Below are positions 27,099 through 34,576 of a stretch of DNA of 34,576 nucleotides, one piece after another. A program made the position numbers and the translations under genes. The DNA comes from Caldisericota bacterium (GTDB lineage: Bacteria > Caldisericota > JANLFM01), in the NCBI GenBank assembly GCA_024655865.1, contig JANLFM010000002.1:138405-172980 (forward strand), read 5' to 3'. Within the stretch, counting starts at the first letter, position 1; each line of letters begins with the position of its first letter. The notes under the pieces were generated by a model that was given only the letters and a program-made list of their open reading frames with translations, made no database searches and was not told the DNA's origin.

Positions 27099-28082
27099 AT
27101 GAGCGCTGATAGGTTGATCACCTGGCTCCTTGAAGGTTCGCCCTGGGTTCAATACAGGACGAGGCTTGATTTGTTGCACCAAAAAGAAAGCGATCCTGAA
27201 GTGCTCAAAGCTCGTCAAGAAATGATTAAACACCGGCAAGTACAGGGACTATTGGCAGAATTGGCTCAATGGCCCGGTTCTATCTTGTCGAGCCACAAGA
27301 GCGCCGGGCATCCGCTTCATAAACTGATCTTCGTTGCTGATCTGGGGCTCAAAGCAACTGACCCCGAGATAAAGCAGATTATTGAGCGAATTTGTGAGCA
27401 TCAAGCGCCAGAGGGCTCATTTCAAGTGCTTATGAATATCCCTCCCCGATATGGCGGTACGGGAAAAGATCAATGGGCCTGGGCGTTATGCGATGCACCT
27501 CTTATCCTCTACGCCTTAGTAAAATTCGGTTTAGGGGAGGACGAGCGCATTCAGAAAGCAAGTGCACATCTTGTAAGCCTGATTAAGGAAAATGGATGGC
27601 CTTGCGCCGTTTCAGAGGAGCTGGGGAAGTTTCGGGGACCGGGGCGTAAGGAGGATCCCTGCCCATATGCTAACCTTATTATGCTCAAAGCCCTGTCACA
27701 GATACCGGGCTTAAACGATAGCAGTGCCAGTTACACTGGTGTGGAGACCTTGCTTGCCCTCTGGGAAGGACGCGAGAAGCGCCACCCCTACATGTTCTTC
27801 ATGGGGACTGATTTTTGCAAGCTCAAGGCGCCCTTTGTCTGGTACGACATCCTGCACGTGGCAGATGTCCTGACCCAGTTTCCCTGGTTGCGCGCAGACG
27901 CTCGTTTAAAAGCCATGATCGGGATAATCAAAAGGAAAGCAGACGAAGAGGGCCGCTTCATCCCTGAATCCATCTGGGAGGCCTGGAAAGAATGGGATTT
28001 TGGACAAAAGCGTGTCCCATCACGCTGGCTGACGCTTGCGGCTCAAAGGGTACTGAAGCGAATGCAGGTTCAAAGTGAATGA
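27099..28082 (+). CDS. Prenyltransferase/squalene-oxidase-like toroid-fold protein (second copy)
   Basis: A 327-residue soluble protein, distantly related to the gene at 6374 and sharing the opening ITWLLEGSPWVQYRTRLDLL. It has alpha-toroid repeat features: PEGSFQVLMNIPPRYGGTG, WAWALCDAPLILYALVKFG, ENGWPCAVSEELGKFRGPG with CPYANLIMLKALSQIP, and YDILHVADVLTQFP. The GW/QxxxGxW-like repeats of terpene cyclases are only partly visible and the catalytic DxDD motif is not. Database entries of this type are often mislabelled as NifH. Function unknown. The ribosome binding site is weak. Transcribed alone. Confidence 0.65.
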   Translation: MSADRLITWLLEGSPWVQYRTRLDLLHQKESDPEVLKARQEMIKHRQVQGLLAELAQWPGSILSSHKSAGHPLHKLIFVADLGLKATDPEIKQIIERICEHQAPEGSFQVLMNIPPRYGGTGKDQWAWALCDAPLILYALVKFGLGEDERIQKASAHLVSLIKENGWPCAVSEELGKFRGPGRKEDPCPYANLIMLKALSQIPGLNDSSASYTGVETLLALWEGREKRHPYMFFMGTDFCKLKAPFVWYDILHVADVLTQFPWLRADARLKAMIGIIKRKADEEGRFIPESIWEAWKEWDFGQKRVPSRWLTLAAQRVLKRMQVQSE

Positions 28083-28219: not shown

Positions 28220-28760
28220 CTAAATTCCTTCCATAACCTCTCCGAAGTCCACTTCCAGGCCGTCTTTTAACTTTCTGTAATAAATAATTTTTACCGCGAT
28301 ACGCTCCGATAGTGCAGTTTTAACCCTCGTAAGTATAAGGCTTTATGGACACAGGAAAATCTCCAATATAGCCGTCGATTCCTTTTGATTCTTCTTCAGG
28401 GACGGCTAAACGGAAGCTTGTTCCTTTTATCTCAGCCCCTTTCTTCAGGATGGCTTCCTGGAATCTCAAGCCGATAAAAGTCTTGACAACCACCAGATCT
28501 CGAACCCATTGCTCCACTAACCCTTTGTCAATACTGTTCAAGGTGTCTTTAAAATTTTGAAGCATCTCCATAATTTTCTCCGTGGCAACCCTGATGGCAT
28601 CAGGTTTTTGCTCCAAGTACCATTGCTCCCACTCTTCTAACGTTCTCCCGGTGAACTCCTGGATAAGCTCGCTCATCTGCCCCACGATTTTGGGTCTGGT
28701 TCCCTGAGCATATTGATTGACCAGGTTAATAATGGGGGCCGTATACTTGGGAAATTCCAC
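28220..28760 (-). pseudogene. MjaI-family type II restriction endonuclease, frameshifted
   Basis: The main frame (28320-28760) encodes 146 residues beginning FPKYTAPIINLVNQYAQGT and containing PKIVGQMSELIQEF and GIDGYIGDFPVSIKPYTYE, the MjaI-type pattern with its Asp and Ser-Ile-Lys near the nuclease site. It then hits a stop. Skipping one G in a GGG run at about 28325 continues at once into VKTALSERIAVKIIYYRK and DGLEVDFGEVMEGI, ending at TAG 28220-28222, to about 179 residues in all. At the 5' end the GGAGG is placed for a TTG in another frame, which would read KLSPWNFP, so a second shift is possible. The gene follows the methyltransferase; the enzyme is probably inactive. Confidence 0.78.
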
Positions 28761-28802
28761 GGGCTCAATTTCAAGGTATTTCCTCCAGGCTGATTTTTAT
28801 TT

Positions 28803-30110
28803 TCATAAAATTTGACCTTCTTTAGCGGACCTTTTCAGGTCAAGAAATTTAGCTTTATACCTATACTCCAGGGTGGCATCCACGTCCACCAACCCGCTTT
28901 TTATCAGATGAGCATTTATGAATGTTTTATTCCACAAATAGAGGTAGCACAATAAATTCTCATCTTTGTCATACTTGAGGTTGTCAAAACGTAAAAATAC
29001 CTTTTGGCCTTTGAGCCTCTCACAAAGAAATCGCATTGCCTTGCCGTTTTCCTCGATTTTCGCCTTTACGCCTATTAATCTTATCTTCAACCCGTTATCC
29101 AGAATTAAAACTTCGGGCGATAGCACCTCCTTAACCCTGTAATATCTTTCCCTCTGATGGTCAGATTGATCGATCTTTGAGCCAAATCTTAATTTTTTGG
29201 GGTCAATTTTTCTTTCAAACTTGACCGGGTCTTGAAAAATGTAAGGGAGCTTTTTAATTTCTTCCCGATAATCAATTTCCCTTTCCTCTTGCTTCAGAAT
29301 TTCAAAAGTTGCATCCTCGAAAATCGCTCCCTGGGTTAGCCCTATCTTGCCTTGAATTACGGGCAAAAACTCTTCGTTTATCTCATATCCGATAGAGTTC
29401 CTGCCCAGATTCCTTGAAGCTAAGGAAGTGGTTCCGCTCCCTAAAAAGGGGTCGAGCACAGTATCTCCAACAAAACTGAACATCTTGATAAGTCGCCTGG
29501 GAAGCTCTTCAGGAAACATGGCAAGATGCTTGTCCTGTTTCTCTCCTGGAAAATTCCAGTGACCGGAGAAGTATTGATTCCACTCTTCCTGGCTTAATCT
29601 GGATTTTTCCTTAATTTTCTTGCTCACCCTGGGAGGGTCCCCGTATTTTCTGAAGATAAGGATAAATTCATAATCCAGCTTGATAATACCGTTTCTGGGG
29701 TAAGGAAAAGAACCCATTACCGTTGCCCCGCCAGTTGTATTACAGGTGGTTACCTTTTGCCAGATGATTGCTCCCATGTAATCGAAACCTGCGCTCTCGC
29801 AGAACTTGATGATCTCTGTCCTGATAGGAATCACTTTGTATCTTCCGTAGTAAACTGAGCGAGCGAACTGGTCCCCAATATTGATGCACAGGCGGCACCC
29901 TTTATGCAGAATTCTATGGCATTCATTCCAGACCAAATTGAGGTTGTTAATGTAGTCCTCATACGAATCGTTGAAGCCTATCTGCTTTCCATTTCCGTAA
30001 TCCTTAAGCTGCCAGTAAGGAGGAGACGTAATGATCAGGTGCACGGACTCGTCAGGAACTTCTTTCATGCATCTTGAATCGCCTATAATAATCTTATGCC
30101 AGGTCTTCAT
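28803..30110 (-). CDS. DNA (cytosine-N4) methyltransferase, MjaI-type, with SNase-like C-terminal domain
   Basis: A 435-residue methyltransferase of beta-type motif order. Motif IV SPPYW (29-33) comes first and the SAM-binding motif I DPFLGSGTT (220-228) follows; SPPYW suggests N4-cytosine methylation. MjaI-type systems recognise CTAG, so CTAG is the likely target by association with the neighbouring endonuclease. Unusual: residues about 325-435 form a staphylococcal-nuclease-like domain (VLILDNGLKIRLIGVKA, KAMRFLCERLKGQKVFLRF, LLCYLYLWNKTFINAHLIKSG). The first catalytic Arg may be kept (R343), but the Gly-Arg of the second Arg motif is Glu-Asn here, so it is probably a binding rather than a cutting domain. 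It starts 190 bases from the tRNA-Ser fragment. Confidence 0.88.
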   Translation of the reverse strand: MKTWHKIIIGDSRCMKEVPDESVHLIITSPPYWQLKDYGNGKQIGFNDSYEDYINNLNLVWNECHRILHKGCRLCINIGDQFARSVYYGRYKVIPIRTEIIKFCESAGFDYMGAIIWQKVTTCNTTGGATVMGSFPYPRNGIIKLDYEFILIFRKYGDPPRVSKKIKEKSRLSQEEWNQYFSGHWNFPGEKQDKHLAMFPEELPRRLIKMFSFVGDTVLDPFLGSGTTSLASRNLGRNSIGYEINEEFLPVIQGKIGLTQGAIFEDATFEILKQEEREIDYREEIKKLPYIFQDPVKFERKIDPKKLRFGSKIDQSDHQRERYYRVKEVLSPEVLILDNGLKIRLIGVKAKIEENGKAMRFLCERLKGQKVFLRFDNLKYDKDENLLCYLYLWNKTFINAHLIKSGLVDVDATLEYRYKAKFLDLKRSAKEGQIL

Positions 30111-30300: not shown

Positions 30301-30355
30301 TGGCGGAGAGACCGGGATTCGAACCCGGGAGCCGGGTTTACCCCGGCCACTCGCT
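30301..30355 (-). repeat. Attachment-site copy: truncated tRNA-Ser 3' half (left)
   Basis: Minus-strand reading gives anticodon loop CTGCTAA (GCT, Ser; at 30354-30360), the long variable arm GCCGGG/CCCGGC typical of class II tRNAs, the T arm CCGGG-TTCGAAT-CCCGG, acceptor strand TCTCTCC, and encoded G-CCA. No matching 5' acceptor (GGAGAGA) or D arm follows to the right, so this is a fragment and not a functional tRNA. Confidence 0.9.
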
Positions 30356-30397
30356 TAGCAGGCGGACGGCTGTAAGTGAAAAGGAGGCTGGCTTTTA

Positions 30398-31294
30398 ATG
30401 CGACCTGCAGGCACCAAAAAAGAGGGCCATTTTCAAACAGCAGTTGGCTCTTTAATTTCCCTGTATTTAAAACAGTGCGACCTCAGGGGCCTTTCCCCGC
30501 GCACAGTTAATATTTACCAGGAGAGCTTGAAGAAATTACTCCATTTTCTCAAAGGCCAGAGATTAGAGGAAGCGGACTTTTATGCCTTTATTTCTTTTTT
30601 AAAGGAATCGGGGAACGGTCCGGTAACCATCAGCATTTACCTGAGAAGCTTAAAGACCTTTTACCGCTGGGCCTATAACCAGGGCTTTATCAAATCCAAT
30701 CCCTTAGCCGGTTTCCCTGCAGTTAAAATTCCCCAAAAACTCCTTCCTACTTTGACCCCCTCAGCACTTCAGGAACTTTTTGACATCACCAGGAAAATCC
30801 AGAGAAACTCCCGGAGAAACCAGGCTCTTTTACTCCTCCTCATTGATACTGCTTTGAGACCAGGAGAACTCCTGAGTCTCACCTTAGAGGATTTTCAAGG
30901 AGATTATATCAAGGTGCGCGGTAAGACCGGGGAAAGGCTCCTTCCTGTCTCTCAAGTTGCCAAGAGAGCCATTCAGGCCTACCTGAAGAAGAGGAGAGCC
31001 TCACCTTTAGAGGATGCACTCTTCACTACCTCAGATGGAAGGCCTTTGACTTACTGCGCTCTGCGCTCCATCTTAAGAACTCTAAAAGAAAAGAGTCAGG
31101 TAAGCAGGCTCTACCCCTACCTTTTCCGCCACACCTCAGCCACCTCCTACCTCCAGAATGGCGCTGATTTGGAGACCGTGAGGCGCCTTTTGGGGCATGC
31201 CACTTATGCCGTTACTCAGAGGTATTTGAGCTTGACTCAAGGGGATTTAGCACGGGCACAGAGGAAAGCCAGCCCGGTGAATAAGCTCAGGTAG
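30398..31294 (+). CDS. Tyrosine recombinase / integrase of the element
   Basis: A 298-residue phage/XerCD-type integrase. The N-terminal SAM-like core-binding domain spans about 13-105 (GLSPRTVNIYQESLKKLL, YLRSLKTFYRWAYNQGFI). The catalytic domain has Arg154 in DTALRPGELLSL, Lys176 in the beta-hairpin, the box PYLFRHTSAT with Arg244 and His245, LLGHA with His267, and the nucleophile Tyr276 in TQRYLSLT. The first His of the usual HxxR box is Tyr241. GGAGG lies ten bases before the ATG. It starts 43 bases from the attachment site, the usual place for an integrase, and should catalyse integration into tRNA-Ser. It is followed after 19 bases by the Cys-rich gene. Confidence 0.93.
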   Translation: MRPAGTKKEGHFQTAVGSLISLYLKQCDLRGLSPRTVNIYQESLKKLLHFLKGQRLEEADFYAFISFLKESGNGPVTISIYLRSLKTFYRWAYNQGFIKSNPLAGFPAVKIPQKLLPTLTPSALQELFDITRKIQRNSRRNQALLLLLIDTALRPGELLSLTLEDFQGDYIKVRGKTGERLLPVSQVAKRAIQAYLKKRRASPLEDALFTTSDGRPLTYCALRSILRTLKEKSQVSRLYPYLFRHTSATSYLQNGADLETVRRLLGHATYAVTQRYLSLTQGDLARAQRKASPVNKLR

Positions 31295-31313
31295 AAAGGA
31301 GGGAAAGGAAAAG

Positions 31314-31505
31314 ATGAAGGAAAGCTGGGTGTTCAGTTGCGACTTAGGATTTCATCAAGATGATTGCGATGCTTACGTAAAAGATGAGCAATTAGACCCT
31401 TTTACAGCCTGTTTCGCTGGTTGCGCATCTTGCGTGCATCGCATCGCGTACAACGTGGCGGAAGGCAGAAGATTACTACCGCCCGCTAAAGAGGAGGAGG
31501 CCTGA
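31314..31505 (+). CDS. Small cysteine-rich protein of the element
   Basis: A 63-residue protein with five cysteines: C9, C18, C33, C37 and C40, in the pattern FSCDLGF, DDCDAY and CFAGCASCVHRI, with His14 and His42 nearby. The cluster C-x3-C-x2-C could bind zinc or an Fe-S centre. GGAGGG before the ATG and the 19-base distance from the integrase gene indicate one transcript. It could be an excision or regulatory helper, but I do not recognise the family. Confidence 0.65.
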   Translation: MKESWVFSCDLGFHQDDCDAYVKDEQLDPFTACFAGCASCVHRIAYNVAEGRRLLPPAKEEEA

Positions 31506-31524
31506 GAAAGGGACTTCAAGAGGA

Positions 31525-31557
31525 AAGGGAGGACCTCTCAGCCCTCCCTTCTTATGT
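31525..31557 (+). terminator. Probable terminator after the integrase/Cys-rich unit
   Basis: Arms AAGGGAGG (31525-31532) and CCTCCCTT (31543-31550) with a 10-base loop, followed by CTTATGTTT, only weakly T-rich. It lies 20 bases after the Cys-rich gene. Confidence 0.5.
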
Positions 31558-31664
31558 TTGCGCAAGCTCAGAAAAAAATATTAGGGATGCTCATTACATT
31601 TTTGGGACTCTAATATGGACATTGGAACTTTTAATTTTGGGATTATTACTTGAACTTCTTCGGC

Positions 31665-31715
31665 TTGACAAGATAATTAAAGTTGTGATAAACTACGACT
31701 ACACTTGAGAAGTGT
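31665..31715 (+). promoter_or_regulatory. Promoter with overlapping inverted-repeat operator, upstream of the XRE-like gene
   Basis: TTGACA at 31665-31670 and an extended -10 (TGTGATAAA, hexamer 31687-31692, spacer 16) make the best sigma70 promoter in the element. Starting nine bases downstream, at the expected start site, is a perfect inverted repeat ACACTT-GAG-AAGTGT (31701-31715), a good operator for a dimeric repressor such as the XRE-like protein encoded next. The 31506-31961 stretch has no gene; besides this and the terminator it holds a leader of about 260 bases with two adjacent stem-loops (31861-31876 and 31878-31900) and two GGTGGAGC copies (31791-31798 and 31883-31890). Confidence 0.6.
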
Positions 31716-31961
31716 GTTTAAGCAGAAGCTTTTTTAAACTATAGCACTGGAGGCTAAAGCCTAAAGAACCAGAAAAATTAAATAAGCCCAGGTGGAGCAC
31801 CCAGCGGGCAGTTTTCCCAAAGAAAGGAGGGAATTCTGTCCGTTTTTTGTTTCCAGAAAGCGGGCCTTGTAGCCCGTCTCAGGGTGGAGCGCATCCTGAG
31901 TATTTGAAAACTGAATATAGAAAGCCGACTGTGTTATTTTTCAAAAAAATAAAGAAAGGAA

Positions 31962-32168
31962 GTGAAGAATTTGAAAAGCCGACTCACAGAAATTTTGGAG
32001 GAGAAGAGCCTAACACGCTTGGATCTCCAATACCTTGCCAGGTGCGGACCTAATTTGATTCGGGGCATCGAAAAGTTTGGCTGGAAGCCCCGTCCTGCAG
32101 TGGCGGAAAAAATCGCCCGCGTTTTGAATGTAAAAGTTTCCGATATTTGGCCCGAGGGAGGTGAATAA
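31962..32168 (+). CDS. XRE/Cro-type helix-turn-helix regulator of the element
   Basis: A 68-residue protein from GTG 31962; a TTG at 31971 has better spacing (ten bases) from AAAGGA and could be the true start. The helix-turn-helix is LTRLDLQYLARCGPNLIRGI, and the C-terminal VAEKIARVLNVKVSDIWPE is the standard ending of XRE domains. It likely controls the promoter and inverted repeat at 31665-31715 upstream of itself. It could act as the repressor keeping the element integrated. A perfect 14-bp stem-loop follows the stop codon. Confidence 0.75.
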   Translation: MKNLKSRLTEILEEKSLTRLDLQYLARCGPNLIRGIEKFGWKPRPAVAEKIARVLNVKVSDIWPEGGE

Positions 32169-32169
32169 C

Positions 32170-32203
32170 GAAGATAGCCGCCTCTGACCAGGCGGCTATC
32201 TTC
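32170..32203 (+). terminator. Perfect 14-bp stem-loop between regulator and replication gene
   Basis: Arms GAAGATAGCCGCCT (32170-32183) and its exact complement (32190-32203) with loop CTGACC, two bases after the regulator's stop codon. No T tract follows, so it may terminate only partly or act as a binding site or RNA processing hairpin. Confidence 0.6.
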
Positions 32204-32316
32204 AAACAAATTATGTTGGACACCAAAAAAATTTTAAAACCCTCTCAATCAAATTGCAATACATTCTCCCAAAAATTTTTTGCTCCGATGGAAAACCAAG
32301 GGGAGGAATGATTTAA

Positions 32317-33636
32317 ATGAGACGTATCTCTAATATTTACTCAGATGCCTATCTTACCTCCCTCCCCGCGCAAGAAAGACTATGTTACCGGGCCTTATTT
32401 GACGTAGCAGAGGTTGGCTGTCTTCTATATGACCCGGTGGTTCTGAGGAACAAACTCTTCCCTACTTCTAAGGATAAAGTCAGTCCCTTAAGAATGAAGG
32501 AAATGCTCAAAAAGTTTGCCAAAGACGGCAAGATTGTCCTTTATAAGGTGAACAACAAGCTTTGCGCTTTTATCACGGATTTCTTTGACTGGGAGAGGGA
32601 TAACAATTGGCCGGAGCCCCAGGTTCCTATTCCTTCCTGGATCAGGTGGGAGCGCTATTCTGAAAAATCTTACCTGGGCAGAGTCGTAGTGGATAAAAAA
32701 GAACTTGAACACGCTCTCACAAGAACAATCTCCTCACAGAATAAAGAAGAGTTGACCCCCGCCTGCCCTCCAGTTGACCTCCAGTTGAGTGCTGGTTCAC
32801 CTCCACTTGACCCCCAACTGACCTCCACTTGCCCTCCATCTGAGGGGAAAGCGACCCCCGATGAACCCGCATTAAATCAAGATTCTTCTTCGCCTTTCTC
32901 GCAAAAAATAGCGTATGGTAATGGAATTGGAAATGGAAATGGTAACGGAAAGGGAAGCGAAAACCAAAATTCTCCCACTCCCCCTCTCATAGAATCTTTT
33001 TCCTTTAAGGAAAAAGGACTTCCCTCTAAAGAGGAAAAAAGCTTAAAAGAGACAAGCTCCTTTCCAGAACCTATCAGGATTTGGGAAGAAACTTTTAGCC
33101 TATCTCTTCCACAGAACCGCTGGCAGGATATAACAGAGACCGTGGGAGAGGACCTGGATCGCTGGGAGGAAGCCTGCCATTCCTGGTTCCTCCACGGCTA
33201 CAAACCCTTGAACATCGCCGGCCTGCTTGATTATTATCAAAGGCATGAGTTTGTAGATGGCTCTGTTATCCCTAAGATGGGCAAAACCGCCGCTGCTCTA
33301 CTTTCCTGGGCAGAGAAGTATGAGAAGGAAGAGGCGGAAGCGCGGGAGGCTGAGTTAAACCCCATAAGTGAAAATGAAAGCTTTTCTGAAGAGCTAATAC
33401 CCAATCAGGAAGCCCCTCCAGAAAAAGCTCCAGACATTCCCGCCTTCCTGGATGAGGAGCGCAAGAGCCTATTGAGGGATATTAAAATTTTAGCCGGTAA
33501 GCTAAAAATTGACCTGAAAGCGCACCTTAAAGGCGGTCCGAGCTTAGAGGAGATGAGCAATGACCAGCTGCACACCCTGAAAAATGACCTTTGGGAAAAG
33601 GACTTCCATCAGACCTATGAGGAAGCGAAAACATGA
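32317..33636 (+). CDS. Replication initiator / replisome organiser, DnaD-like
   Basis: A 439-residue protein. Residues 1-115 form a winged-helix replisome-organiser-type domain (RRISNIYSDAYLTSLPAQ, DFFDWERDNNWPEPQVP). Residues about 145-240 are a low-complexity linker containing an 11-residue imperfect repeat (PPVDLQLSAGS, PPLDPQLTSTC) and a Gly-Asn run. Residues about 258-310 resemble the DnaD C-terminal domain (FSLSLPQNRWQDITETV, WEEACHSWFLHGYKPLNIA, LLDYYQ). An acidic helical tail follows. Such proteins in Gram-positive phages bind iterons in their own gene and recruit the host helicase. GGGGAGG lies ten bases before the ATG. Its gene carries the candidate origin at 32767-32843. Confidence 0.8.
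   Translation: MRRISNIYSDAYLTSLPAQERLCYRALFDVAEVGCLLYDPVVLRNKLFPTSKDKVSPLRMKEMLKKFAKDGKIVLYKVNNKLCAFITDFFDWERDNNWPEPQVPIPSWIRWERYSEKSYLGRVVVDKKELEHALTRTISSQNKEELTPACPPVDLQLSAGSPPLDPQLTSTCPPSEGKATPDEPALNQDSSSPFSQKIAYGNGIGNGNGNGKGSENQNSPTPPLIESFSFKEKGLPSKEEKSLKETSSFPEPIRIWEETFSLSLPQNRWQDITETVGEDLDRWEEACHSWFLHGYKPLNIAGLLDYYQRHEFVDGSVIPKMGKTAAALLSWAEKYEKEEAEAREAELNPISENESFSEELIPNQEAPPEKAPDIPAFLDEERKSLLRDIKILAGKLKIDLKAHLKGGPSLEEMSNDQLHTLKNDLWEKDFHQTYEEAKT
32767..32843 (+). repeat. Seven tandem 11-bp iteron-like repeats inside the replication gene (candidate origin)
   Basis: Seven head-to-tail 11-base units: CCTCCAGTTGA twice, GTGCTGGTTCA, CCTCCACTTGA, CCCCCAACTGA, CCTCCACTTGC, CCTCCATCTGA. Consensus CCTCCA(c/g)TTGA; the third unit is degenerate. 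Eleven is not a multiple of three, so the units run through all three codon positions, which argues for selection on DNA. One unit per helical turn puts all sites on one face. Placement inside the initiator gene is like lambda ori in gene O. Confidence 0.7.
32917..32958 (+). repeat. Seven 6-bp GGNAAN repeats (Gly-Asn linker)
   Basis: GGTAAT, GGAATT, GGAAAT, GGAAAT, GGTAAC, GGAAAG, GGAAGC in tandem, encoding GNGIGNGNGNGKGS. Being in phase with codons it may be only a protein linker, but it lies 74 bases after the iterons and is strand-biased. Confidence 0.6.
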
Positions 33637-33665
33637 CGGAAAAGGCCTGAAAGAAAGAGCGATAG

Positions 33666-33703
33666 CGGGGCGCCTTGGTGTCACGGGAAGAAAAGGCGCC
33701 CCG
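33666..33703. other. GC-rich stem-loop downstream of the replication gene
   Basis: Arms CGGGGCGCCTT (33666-33676) and AAGGCGCCCCG (33693-33703), 11 bp perfect, loop 16 bases, with no T tract. It lies 30 bases after the replication gene. Next to it are GCAATTGC and GACCCCAGGGCC-type symmetric sequences. It may be a terminator, a priming site or part of a second replication control region. Confidence 0.45.
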
Positions 33704-33818
33704 GACGCAATTGCGCCCTGACAGACCCCAGGGCCAGGGGCAATTATCTGAACGCGCATAAGCTCGGACCGTGGTGGCAAGAAAGCGCACACGCCCGCGT
33801 TATTTTTTAAAATGAAAT

Positions 33819-33841
33819 TTTTATGACAAATTTTATGACAA
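33819..33841 (+). repeat. Two 11-bp direct repeats TTTTATGACAA
   Basis: Exact copies at 33819-33829 and 33831-33841, 12 bases apart, in an AT-rich stretch before the last gene of the element. They could be recombinase arm sites, iterons or regulator sites. Confidence 0.5.
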
Positions 33842-33895
33842 GCCCACGCAAGGGGCCTGTCAATCCCGGAGTCCAACCCTGAGGAGGTGGTGAAG

Positions 33896-34102
33896 ATGCC
33901 TTACAAGGACCCGGAGGAAGAGCGATTAGAGGAGCCAGAGATGGAGAAAGCTTTGGGAGGAAAAGTGGCAAAGGATATTCAAGAGGCCTTAGAGATTTTG
34001 GAGGAACTTTCTGAGGTCCTGGACCGCCAGGAAGAATTGCTCAAGCTCCTCAAAGAAAAAAGGCAGGTTCTTGAGATTATTATCCGGGAACCCACCTCTT
34101 GA
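33896..34102 (+). CDS. Small acidic helical protein of the element
   Basis: A 68-residue protein from ATG 33896, six bases after AGGAGGTG; the frame also has GTGs just upstream that overlap this signal and are unlikely starts. It is rich in Glu, Lys and Leu and should be almost wholly helical: KVAKDIQEALEILEELSE, VLDRQEELLKLLKEKRQVL, with heptad-like Leu/Ile spacing of a coiled coil. No known domain. A helper or partner of the replication protein is possible but not shown. Confidence 0.6.
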   Translation: MPYKDPEEERLEEPEMEKALGGKVAKDIQEALEILEELSEVLDRQEELLKLLKEKRQVLEIIIREPTS

Positions 34103-34521
34103 CCCCTCAAAAATGCCCTCAAATTTGCCCGTAGAGGTGGGGTGGGATAGTAGGAACGTAAAACACTACCCCCTACATTCAACAGGGCAAAAAGGGCCAC
34201 TTTTTAAATTTGATTCCACCAGCTAAGTCCTGAAGCGGAAGAGAAGGCTTTTTATCAAAATCCCCGAAAATGGCTCTATGCCTTTCAAATTTGACAATAG
34301 TGAGTATAGCCAAGAAGTTTATGGGATGGTAAAATGAAACTACGAAAAGCCAACCTTCCGGAAAGGGGAGGGGTCCGCATCCTCTCCCCTAATTTTTTTA
34401 TATTTCCCCTTCCCAAAAATGACAAAATGTTTTATCTTATGGGTGGCTCCTTTAAGGAGACTATTTGAACAGCGCCTAGCTTCTGGAAGAGGAACAAGAA
34501 ATAAAAAATCTCTTCTCCAGC
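34103..34521. other. Gene-free right arm of the element
   Basis: No convincing gene. A short frame from ATG 34334 has no family and runs through the terminator hairpin, so I leave it out. Contains AT-rich blocks and the terminator at 34364-34397. This is the arm next to the attachment site, where recombinase accessory sites would be expected. Confidence 0.4.
34364..34397 (+). terminator. Intrinsic terminator in the right arm of the element
   Basis: Arms AGGGGAGG and CCTCTCCCCT (one mismatch or bulge) around a loop near GGTCCGCAT, followed by AATTTTTTTA. It is a good rho-independent shape, placed to stop transcription before the tRNA gene. Confidence 0.65.
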
Positions 34522-34576
34522 TGGCGGAGAGACCGGGATTCGAACCCGGGAGCCGGGTTTACCCCGGCCACTCGCT
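34522..34576 (-). tRNA. tRNA-Ser (GCT expected), 3' half, cut by window edge
   Basis: Identical over 55 bases to the left attachment copy. It includes the variable arm, T arm, 3' acceptor strand TCTCTCC and encoded CCA. The anticodon and 5' half lie beyond the window; the left copy shows the loop CTGCTAA, anticodon GCT. This is presumably the functional gene and the integration target, with the element lying on its 3' side. Confidence 0.8.

What the first reader, a model, noticed from the sequence alone, without database searches (positions are those of the whole stretch)
30301..34576. A 4.2-kb minimal integrative replicon in tRNA-Ser
Seen directly: 55-base identical direct repeats, both the 3' half of a tRNA-Ser, bound a unit with integrase, Cys-rich protein, XRE-like regulator, DnaD-like initiator with internal iterons and a small helical protein. 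Only the right copy can be a full tRNA. The unit is far smaller than typical integrative conjugative elements or known phage satellites and has no packaging or transfer gene. It could be an integrating plasmid or a helper-dependent satellite of a type not yet described.
Basis: partly seen in the sequence, partly recalled or inferred. Interest (0 to 1): 0.82.

Follow-up and report, generated by a model that had tools for sequence, protein, structure and literature searches.

The report
Tiny tRNA-integrated replicating DNA element
A complete 4.2-kb mobile DNA element, carrying little more than an integrase and a phage-type replication starter, sits precisely in a serine tRNA gene of an uncultured bacterium; a sister genome has the same site empty, and the element carries no packaging or transfer genes, so how it travels is unknown.

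Summary
A 4,221-bp unit (30301-34521) lies between two identical copies of the 3' part of tRNA-Ser(GCT). The window ends because the contig ends. The missing 5' half of the tRNA starts contig C15; joined to the window end it gives a 93-nt tRNA-Ser(GCT) identical to that of same-genus genome G001. The left copy matches for 64 nt, not 55. G001 has the site empty, with genes of both flanks around the intact tRNA, so integration is shown. The unit holds a tyrosine integrase, an orphan Cys-rich protein, an XRE-like regulator, a phage-type initiator with 11-bp iterons inside its gene (0 of 5,000 synonymous shuffles as strong) and a small helical protein; no packaging or transfer gene. Integrases 78-82% identical sit at three other tRNAs here (two empty in G001), but capture the 5' part. 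Best reading: a minimal integrative replicon that excises, replicates from its internal iterons and needs outside help to spread. Satellite versus integrating plasmid cannot be decided. Comparable minimal elements are published (PICMI 6.1 kb; NitUzo-E2 2.6 kb), so it is a new variant of a known kind.

The parts
30301..30364 (-). attL: truncated 3' part (64 nt) of tRNA-Ser(GCT); not a functional tRNA
   Evidence: 64/64 identical to G001 tRNA-Ser(GCT), then diverges; ARAGORN finds no tRNA here
30398..31294 (+). int: tyrosine recombinase, 298 aa
   Evidence: PF00589 1.1e-27 and SAM-like N-domain; dN/dS 0.05-0.15 against three paralogues in the same genome
31314..31505 (+). Cys-rich 63-aa protein, 19 nt behind int; orphan; possible excision or accessory factor (guess)
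   Evidence: no convincing family hit; no relative in 54 genomes of the phylum
31665..31694 (+). sigma-70-like promoter (TTGACA, 18-nt spacer, TAAACT with TG before it) ahead of the regulator/rep genes
   Evidence: consensus scan only
31962..32168 (+). XRE/Cro-like small DNA-binding protein, 68 aa
   Evidence: weak: phrog_8 5.4e-5; HTH_26/HTH_3 below Pfam cut-off
32317..33636 (+). rep: phage-type replication initiator (replisome-organiser-like), 439 aa
   Evidence: N-terminal part phrog_1408/2149; C-terminal part 39-40% identical to initiator P0006 on contig C13 (E about 1e-16), which itself hits phrog_16167 'replication initiation' 1e-47
32752..32850 (+). about 9 iterons of 11 bp, consensus YTGACCTCCAS, inside the linker-coding part of rep; presumed origin
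   Evidence: relatives carry 15-bp repeats at the same place in their rep genes
33887..34102 (+). small acidic helical protein, 71 aa; orphan
   Evidence: no convincing family hit; no relative in the phylum
34364..34390 (+). strong terminator-like hairpin (10 bp stem, T-run) closing the element
   Evidence: consensus scan
34522..34576 (-). attR: 3' part of the functional tRNA-Ser(GCT), cut by the contig end; the 5' half is at the start of contig C15 (L006)

Best explanation
A complete minimal integrative replicon (a 'hitcher'-type cryptic integrated element). The integrase recombined a circular form, carrying a 64-nt copy of the 3' part of tRNA-Ser(GCT), into that tRNA gene; the element-borne copy rebuilds a working tRNA at the right end and the displaced stub marks the left end (integration shown by the empty site in G001). 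On excision, the 439-aa phage-type initiator is inferred to bind the 11-bp iterons inside its own gene and recruit the host replisome for theta-type replication, under control of the XRE-like protein. As it has no packaging, capsid, relaxase or mating gene, spread between cells is inferred to rely on an outside vehicle; a phage particle and plasmid-like routes are about equally likely.
For: Integration: rebuilt tRNA 93/93 identical to G001; G001 has the 327-aa gene of the left flank and the MFS gene of the right flank (C15) on the two sides of the intact tRNA. Live integrase family: three further int genes 78-82% identical plus one broken 47% copy in the same genome, all directly behind truncated tRNAs, dN/dS 0.05-0.18 among the four intact ones, and two of those sites also empty in G001 (tRNA-Lys(TTT), tRNA-Arg(CCG)). 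Replication: initiator family and conserved C-domain, iterons beyond 5,000 synonymous shuffles with a period that does not fit the reading frame, and iterons at the same place in relatives. Helper need: no structural or transfer gene in the unit; no terminase (phrog_2), portal (PF04860) or relaxase (PF03432) match in the genome.
Against: No reads, so no excised circle, copy number or empty site within the population is seen. Only one copy of this gene set is known; no relatives in viral contigs, phages or plasmids. The N-terminal match of rep is weak and the structure model is too poor to use (pLDDT 42). No DnaA-box enrichment. The join between C22 and C15 is by matching sequence and G001 synteny, not by assembly.
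Confidence: 0.6

Rival explanations
1. Phage satellite in the strict sense: induced by a helper phage, replicated from its iterons as a concatemer and packaged into helper particles, like PICMIs.
For: Phage-type initiator, XRE-like regulator, integrase, no structural genes; size near PICMI115; relatives on C6/C13 carry further phage-early genes (HNH, phrog_19042, G39P-like helicase loader).
Against: No AlpA, primase, terS or capsid-remodelling gene; no helper prophage markers found in the genome, though PICMI helpers are virulent phages; not found in viral contigs, though the window's own records may be left out there.
Confidence: 0.35
2. Integrating plasmid: a self-replicating low-copy circle that integrates into tRNA-Ser and spreads by transformation, vesicles or plasmid mobilisation.
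For: Self-contained int plus rep plus iterons; no virion gene; iteron control is typical of plasmids (general knowledge).
Against: The initiator belongs to phage families; no plasmid record matches by protein or DNA; no relaxase in the unit and no PF03432 match in the genome.
Confidence: 0.35
3. Remnant of a temperate phage or larger island that lost its other genes and is fixed in place.
For: Larger relatives in the same genome share int (E3 on C6) or the initiator C-domain (C13).
Against: Both att ends are precise, all ORFs are intact, iterons and terminator are preserved, int is under purifying selection; the unit is not a recent deletion of E3 or C13, since outside int only 89 bp of rep align at DNA level; the site is empty in G001.
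Confidence: 0.2
4. Assembly artefact: the right repeat is a contig-edge k-mer and the unit is not bounded there.
For: The repeat stops exactly at the contig end and at 55 nt, a likely assembly k; C15 starts with a fold-back.
Against: tRNA rebuilt from the window end and C15 is 93/93 identical to G001, and G001 places both flanks together.
Confidence: 0.04

Closest known systems
Cryptic integrated elements (CIE) of Thaumarchaeota, e.g. NitUzo-E2, 2.6 kb (PMC6563490)
   Same: Integrase plus a DNA-binding or replication protein and small orphans, no virion or transfer genes, minimal size
   Different: Archaeal, unrelated replication proteins; here a bacterial phage-type initiator with in-gene iterons
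PICMI phage satellites, PICMI115 6,110 bp (PMC10803314)
   Same: Integrase, regulator, one replication protein, few orphans, no capsid-remodelling gene
   Different: PICMIs have AlpA and a DUF3987/DUF5906 primase and sit next to fis in Vibrionaceae; none of these here; helper dependence shown there, not here
SaPI/PICI satellites of Gram-positive bacteria (from general knowledge)
   Same: int, repressor-like regulator, replication initiator with nearby iterons
   Different: No primase/helicase, terS, capsid morphogenesis or interference genes; about a third of the size
pTN3-like archaeal elements that integrate in the 5' half of tRNA genes (PMC8371274)
   Same: The sister elements E2-E4 here capture the 5' part of the tRNA, so the rebuilt tRNA would use element-borne upstream sequence
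   Different: Bacterial; and the window element, with an integrase about 80% identical, captures the 3' part instead

Membership tests
tRNA-targeted genomic island / integrated mobile element (tyrosine integrase) | Intact tyrosine integrase, direct repeats that are tRNA parts, regenerated full tRNA at one end | tested here: met
tRNA-targeted genomic island / integrated mobile element (tyrosine integrase) | Empty site in a related genome | tested here: met
   G001:C22
Cryptic integrated element (replicon with int, no virion or conjugation genes) | Replication protein present, hallmark virus/conjugation genes absent | tested here: met
   whole unit read
Cryptic integrated element (replicon with int, no virion or conjugation genes) | Excises and replicates as a circle | not testable with these tools
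   no reads or culture
PICMI | AlpA plus DUF3987/DUF5906 primase | tested here: not met
   no such Pfam hit in any gene of the unit; definition from PMC10803314
PICMI | Integrated next to fis | tested here: not met
   integrated in tRNA-Ser(GCT)
Phage satellite (general) | Mobilised by a helper phage | not testable with these tools
   no helper markers found in the genome, which does not exclude a virulent helper
PICI / SaPI | Primase/helicase, packaging or capsid-redirecting genes | tested here: not met
   five genes only, none of these
Tailed prophage | Terminase, portal, capsid | tested here: not met
   absent in the unit; no phrog_2 or PF04860 match in the genome
Integrative mobilisable element (IME) | Relaxase or oriT | tested here: inconclusive
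   no relaxase in the unit and no PF03432 match in the genome; oriT cannot be recognised

The most novel reading that the evidence does not exclude
The unit is the smallest member of a not yet described family of satellite-like replicons whose integrase lineage uses the palindromic tRNA T-loop (TTCGAA) as its core, so that near-identical integrases can insert in either orientation and capture either the 3' part (this element) or the 5' part with upstream sequence (E2, E3, E4) of many different tRNAs in one genome.
Probability: 0.25. Interest if true: 0.7.

Novelty: new variant of a known kind. Interest (0 to 1): 0.48.

Why it matters
It narrows what an integrated mobile element needs: an integrase, one initiator with its own iterons, a regulator and two small proteins. 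It documents several related integrations in one uncultured species, each with a truncated tRNA piece at the integrase side, and poses a testable question: how the same integrase lineage captures the 3' part of one tRNA and the 5' part of others (5' capture is described as rare in bacteria, PMC8371274).

Tried and rejected
Larger prophage beyond the window: rejected, the next sequence is chromosome (C15), as in G001. Chance repeat: rejected. Assembly artefact: rejected by the rebuilt tRNA and G001 synteny. Deletion derivative of the C6/C13 elements: unlikely, only int and a short rep stretch align at DNA level. Searches for relatives of rep and int in IMG/VR by single protein and by alignment, of rep in phages and plasmids by protein and of the whole unit in plasmids by DNA, and of int in genome contigs (two distant 25-28% hits) gave nothing close; records of this genome may be left out of those collections. 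The rep hit in G081 is a low-complexity NGNGNG match and was dropped. The AlphaFold model of rep is unusable (pLDDT 42), so no fold search was made. Rfam gave only sub-threshold noise and tRNA-like pieces. The E2, E4 and E5 elements run off contig ends, so their sizes are unknown.

Full report
OBSERVATION. The two 55-nt direct repeats are real and identical. The window is the last 34.6 kb of contig C22, so the right copy is cut by the contig end. Contig C15 of the same genome begins, after a short fold-back, with the 5' half of a tRNA-Ser(GCT). Joining the window end to C15 gives a tRNA that ARAGORN calls tRNA-Ser(gct) and that is 93/93 identical to the intact gene of the same-genus genome G001; the left copy matches for 64 nt (30301-30364) and then diverges, and yields no tRNA. 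The 55-nt figure therefore most likely reflects assembly, not biology: contig C8 also starts with an exact 55-mer shared with C55.

EMPTY SITE. In G001 the order is: 327-aa gene (orthologue of window 27099-28082), antiporter gene, tRNA-Ser(GCT), MFS gene (orthologue of the first gene of C15). G000 thus has two additions between these flanks: a MjaI-type restriction-modification pair (28320-30110) in place of the antiporter, and the 4,221-bp element in the tRNA. That integration took place is shown by comparison, not inferred from the repeats alone.

GENES. int (298 aa, PF00589); a 63-aa Cys-rich orphan; a 68-aa XRE-like protein (weak matches); a 439-aa initiator; a 71-aa helical orphan; coding density 67%; GC 46.8% against 47.3% for the window. 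The initiator's N-terminal part matches phage replication-initiation families weakly (phrog_1408, phrog_2149), and its C-terminal part is 39-40% identical to a 545-aa protein on contig C13, a clear phage-type initiator (phrog_16167, 1e-47) followed by a G39P-like helicase loader (PF11417). A sigma-70-like promoter lies upstream of the regulator, and a strong terminator-like hairpin closes the unit 131 bp before attR.

ITERONS. About nine 11-bp units lie at 32752-32850, in the part of rep that encodes the linker. In 5,000 shuffles that keep the protein and the codon set, none reached the observed lag-11 periodicity (51/84 against at most 48/84). Because 11 is not a multiple of three, the repeat is not a by-product of a short repeated peptide. 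Relatives on C13, G002 and G004 carry 15-bp repeats at the same place. The arrangement (initiator gene containing its own origin) resembles phage lambda O and Gram-positive phage initiators (general knowledge). That it works as an origin is inferred.

FAMILY IN THIS GENOME. Naming used here: E1 is the window element, E2 is on C55/C8, E3 on C6/C62, E4 on C38, E5 on C42. Three further integrase genes 78-82% identical and one broken copy (47%) lie on C55, C6, C38 and C42. Each stands directly behind the 5' ~55 nt of a tRNA (Lys-TTT, Arg-CCG, Arg-TCT, Thr-CGT), broken in the T-loop. For Lys and Arg-CCG, G001 has the uninterrupted locus, with G000's two contigs lying on its two sides (C55/C8 and C6/C62), so these are also insertions with a truncated tRNA at the int side and a complete one at the far side. 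dN/dS among the four intact integrases is 0.05-0.18. E3 on C6 carries ImmA/IrrE-HIRAN, XRE, HNH and phrog_19042 genes; the similar gene block on C13 leads to initiator, loader and type I R-M genes; neither shows phage structural genes in the part held. No terminase (phrog_2), portal (PF04860) or relaxase (PF03432) match was found in the genome; these are single-family searches of a 96%-complete draft.

ATT ORIENTATION. The window element captures the 3' part of its tRNA, with int reading antisense to it; E2-E4 capture the 5' part, sense. For E3 the ~95 bp upstream of the two tRNA copies are also alike, as expected if the element brings upstream sequence along. 5'-half capture is known for archaeal pTN3-like integrases and is described as seldom met in bacteria (PMC8371274). 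A simple account is that the core is the T-loop, whose TTCGAA is palindromic; this is inference and was not tested.

COMPARISON. The gene set fails the tests for PICMI (no AlpA, no primase, not at fis), PICI and prophage, gives no relaxase for IME, and fits the loose class of cryptic integrated elements, in which a 2.6-kb example is published (PMC6563490). PICMI115 (6,110 bp; PMC10803314) shows that about six genes suffice for a true satellite, so a satellite life for this element is possible but unproven. Hence: new variant of a known kind; satellite and integrating plasmid are about equally likely.

LIMITS. One copy only, no reads, no named host, weak annotation of three of five genes, and the C22-C15 join rests on sequence overlap and synteny.

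Noticed in passing
window 28320-30110: Restriction-modification pair beside attL: MjaI-type endonuclease (PF09568, 1e-60) and a DNA methyltransferase fused to an SNase domain (PF01555 + PF00565). It stands where G001 has an antiporter gene; no second tRNA stub was found to its left. Possibly cargo of an earlier insertion at this site.
   Followed up: partly
L028 1053-2609, L029 8743-9639, L030 1020-1913, L031 74-757: Related integrases directly behind 5' parts of tRNA-Lys(TTT), Arg(CCG), Arg(TCT) and Thr(CGT), broken at the T-loop: 5'-part capture, rare in bacteria, by integrases about 80% identical (47% for the broken one) to the window's 3'-part-capturing one.
   Followed up: partly
L027 9170-15542 (contig C13) and C13:1080-14879: Initiator (545 aa), G39P-like loader, HNH, phrog_19042, XRE and ImmA-HIRAN genes next to type I R-M genes, with no phage structural gene seen; a replicating island type of its own.
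   Followed up: partly
L032 2258-3846, L033 9102-10708: The same initiator-loader gene pair stands alone in G002 and G004, beside toxin-antitoxin-like genes and, in G004, type I R-M genes.
   Followed up: partly
L028 1053-1124: Second, truncated integrase 3' end (last 22 codons) behind the C55 integrase: trace of tandem insertions at tRNA-Lys.
   Followed up: no
G000 contig ends C1:66335, C8:1, C10:5, C15:1, C42:1: Several contigs end inside tRNA genes and only 34 tRNA matches are found against 49 in G001, which hints at more tRNA-targeted insertions or duplications that broke the assembly.
   Followed up: no
window 31913-31930 and 31967-31984: Imperfect direct repeat (GAATATAGAAAGCCGACT / GAATTTGAAAAGCCGACT, 83%) around the start of the XRE-like gene; possible operator pair.
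   Followed up: no
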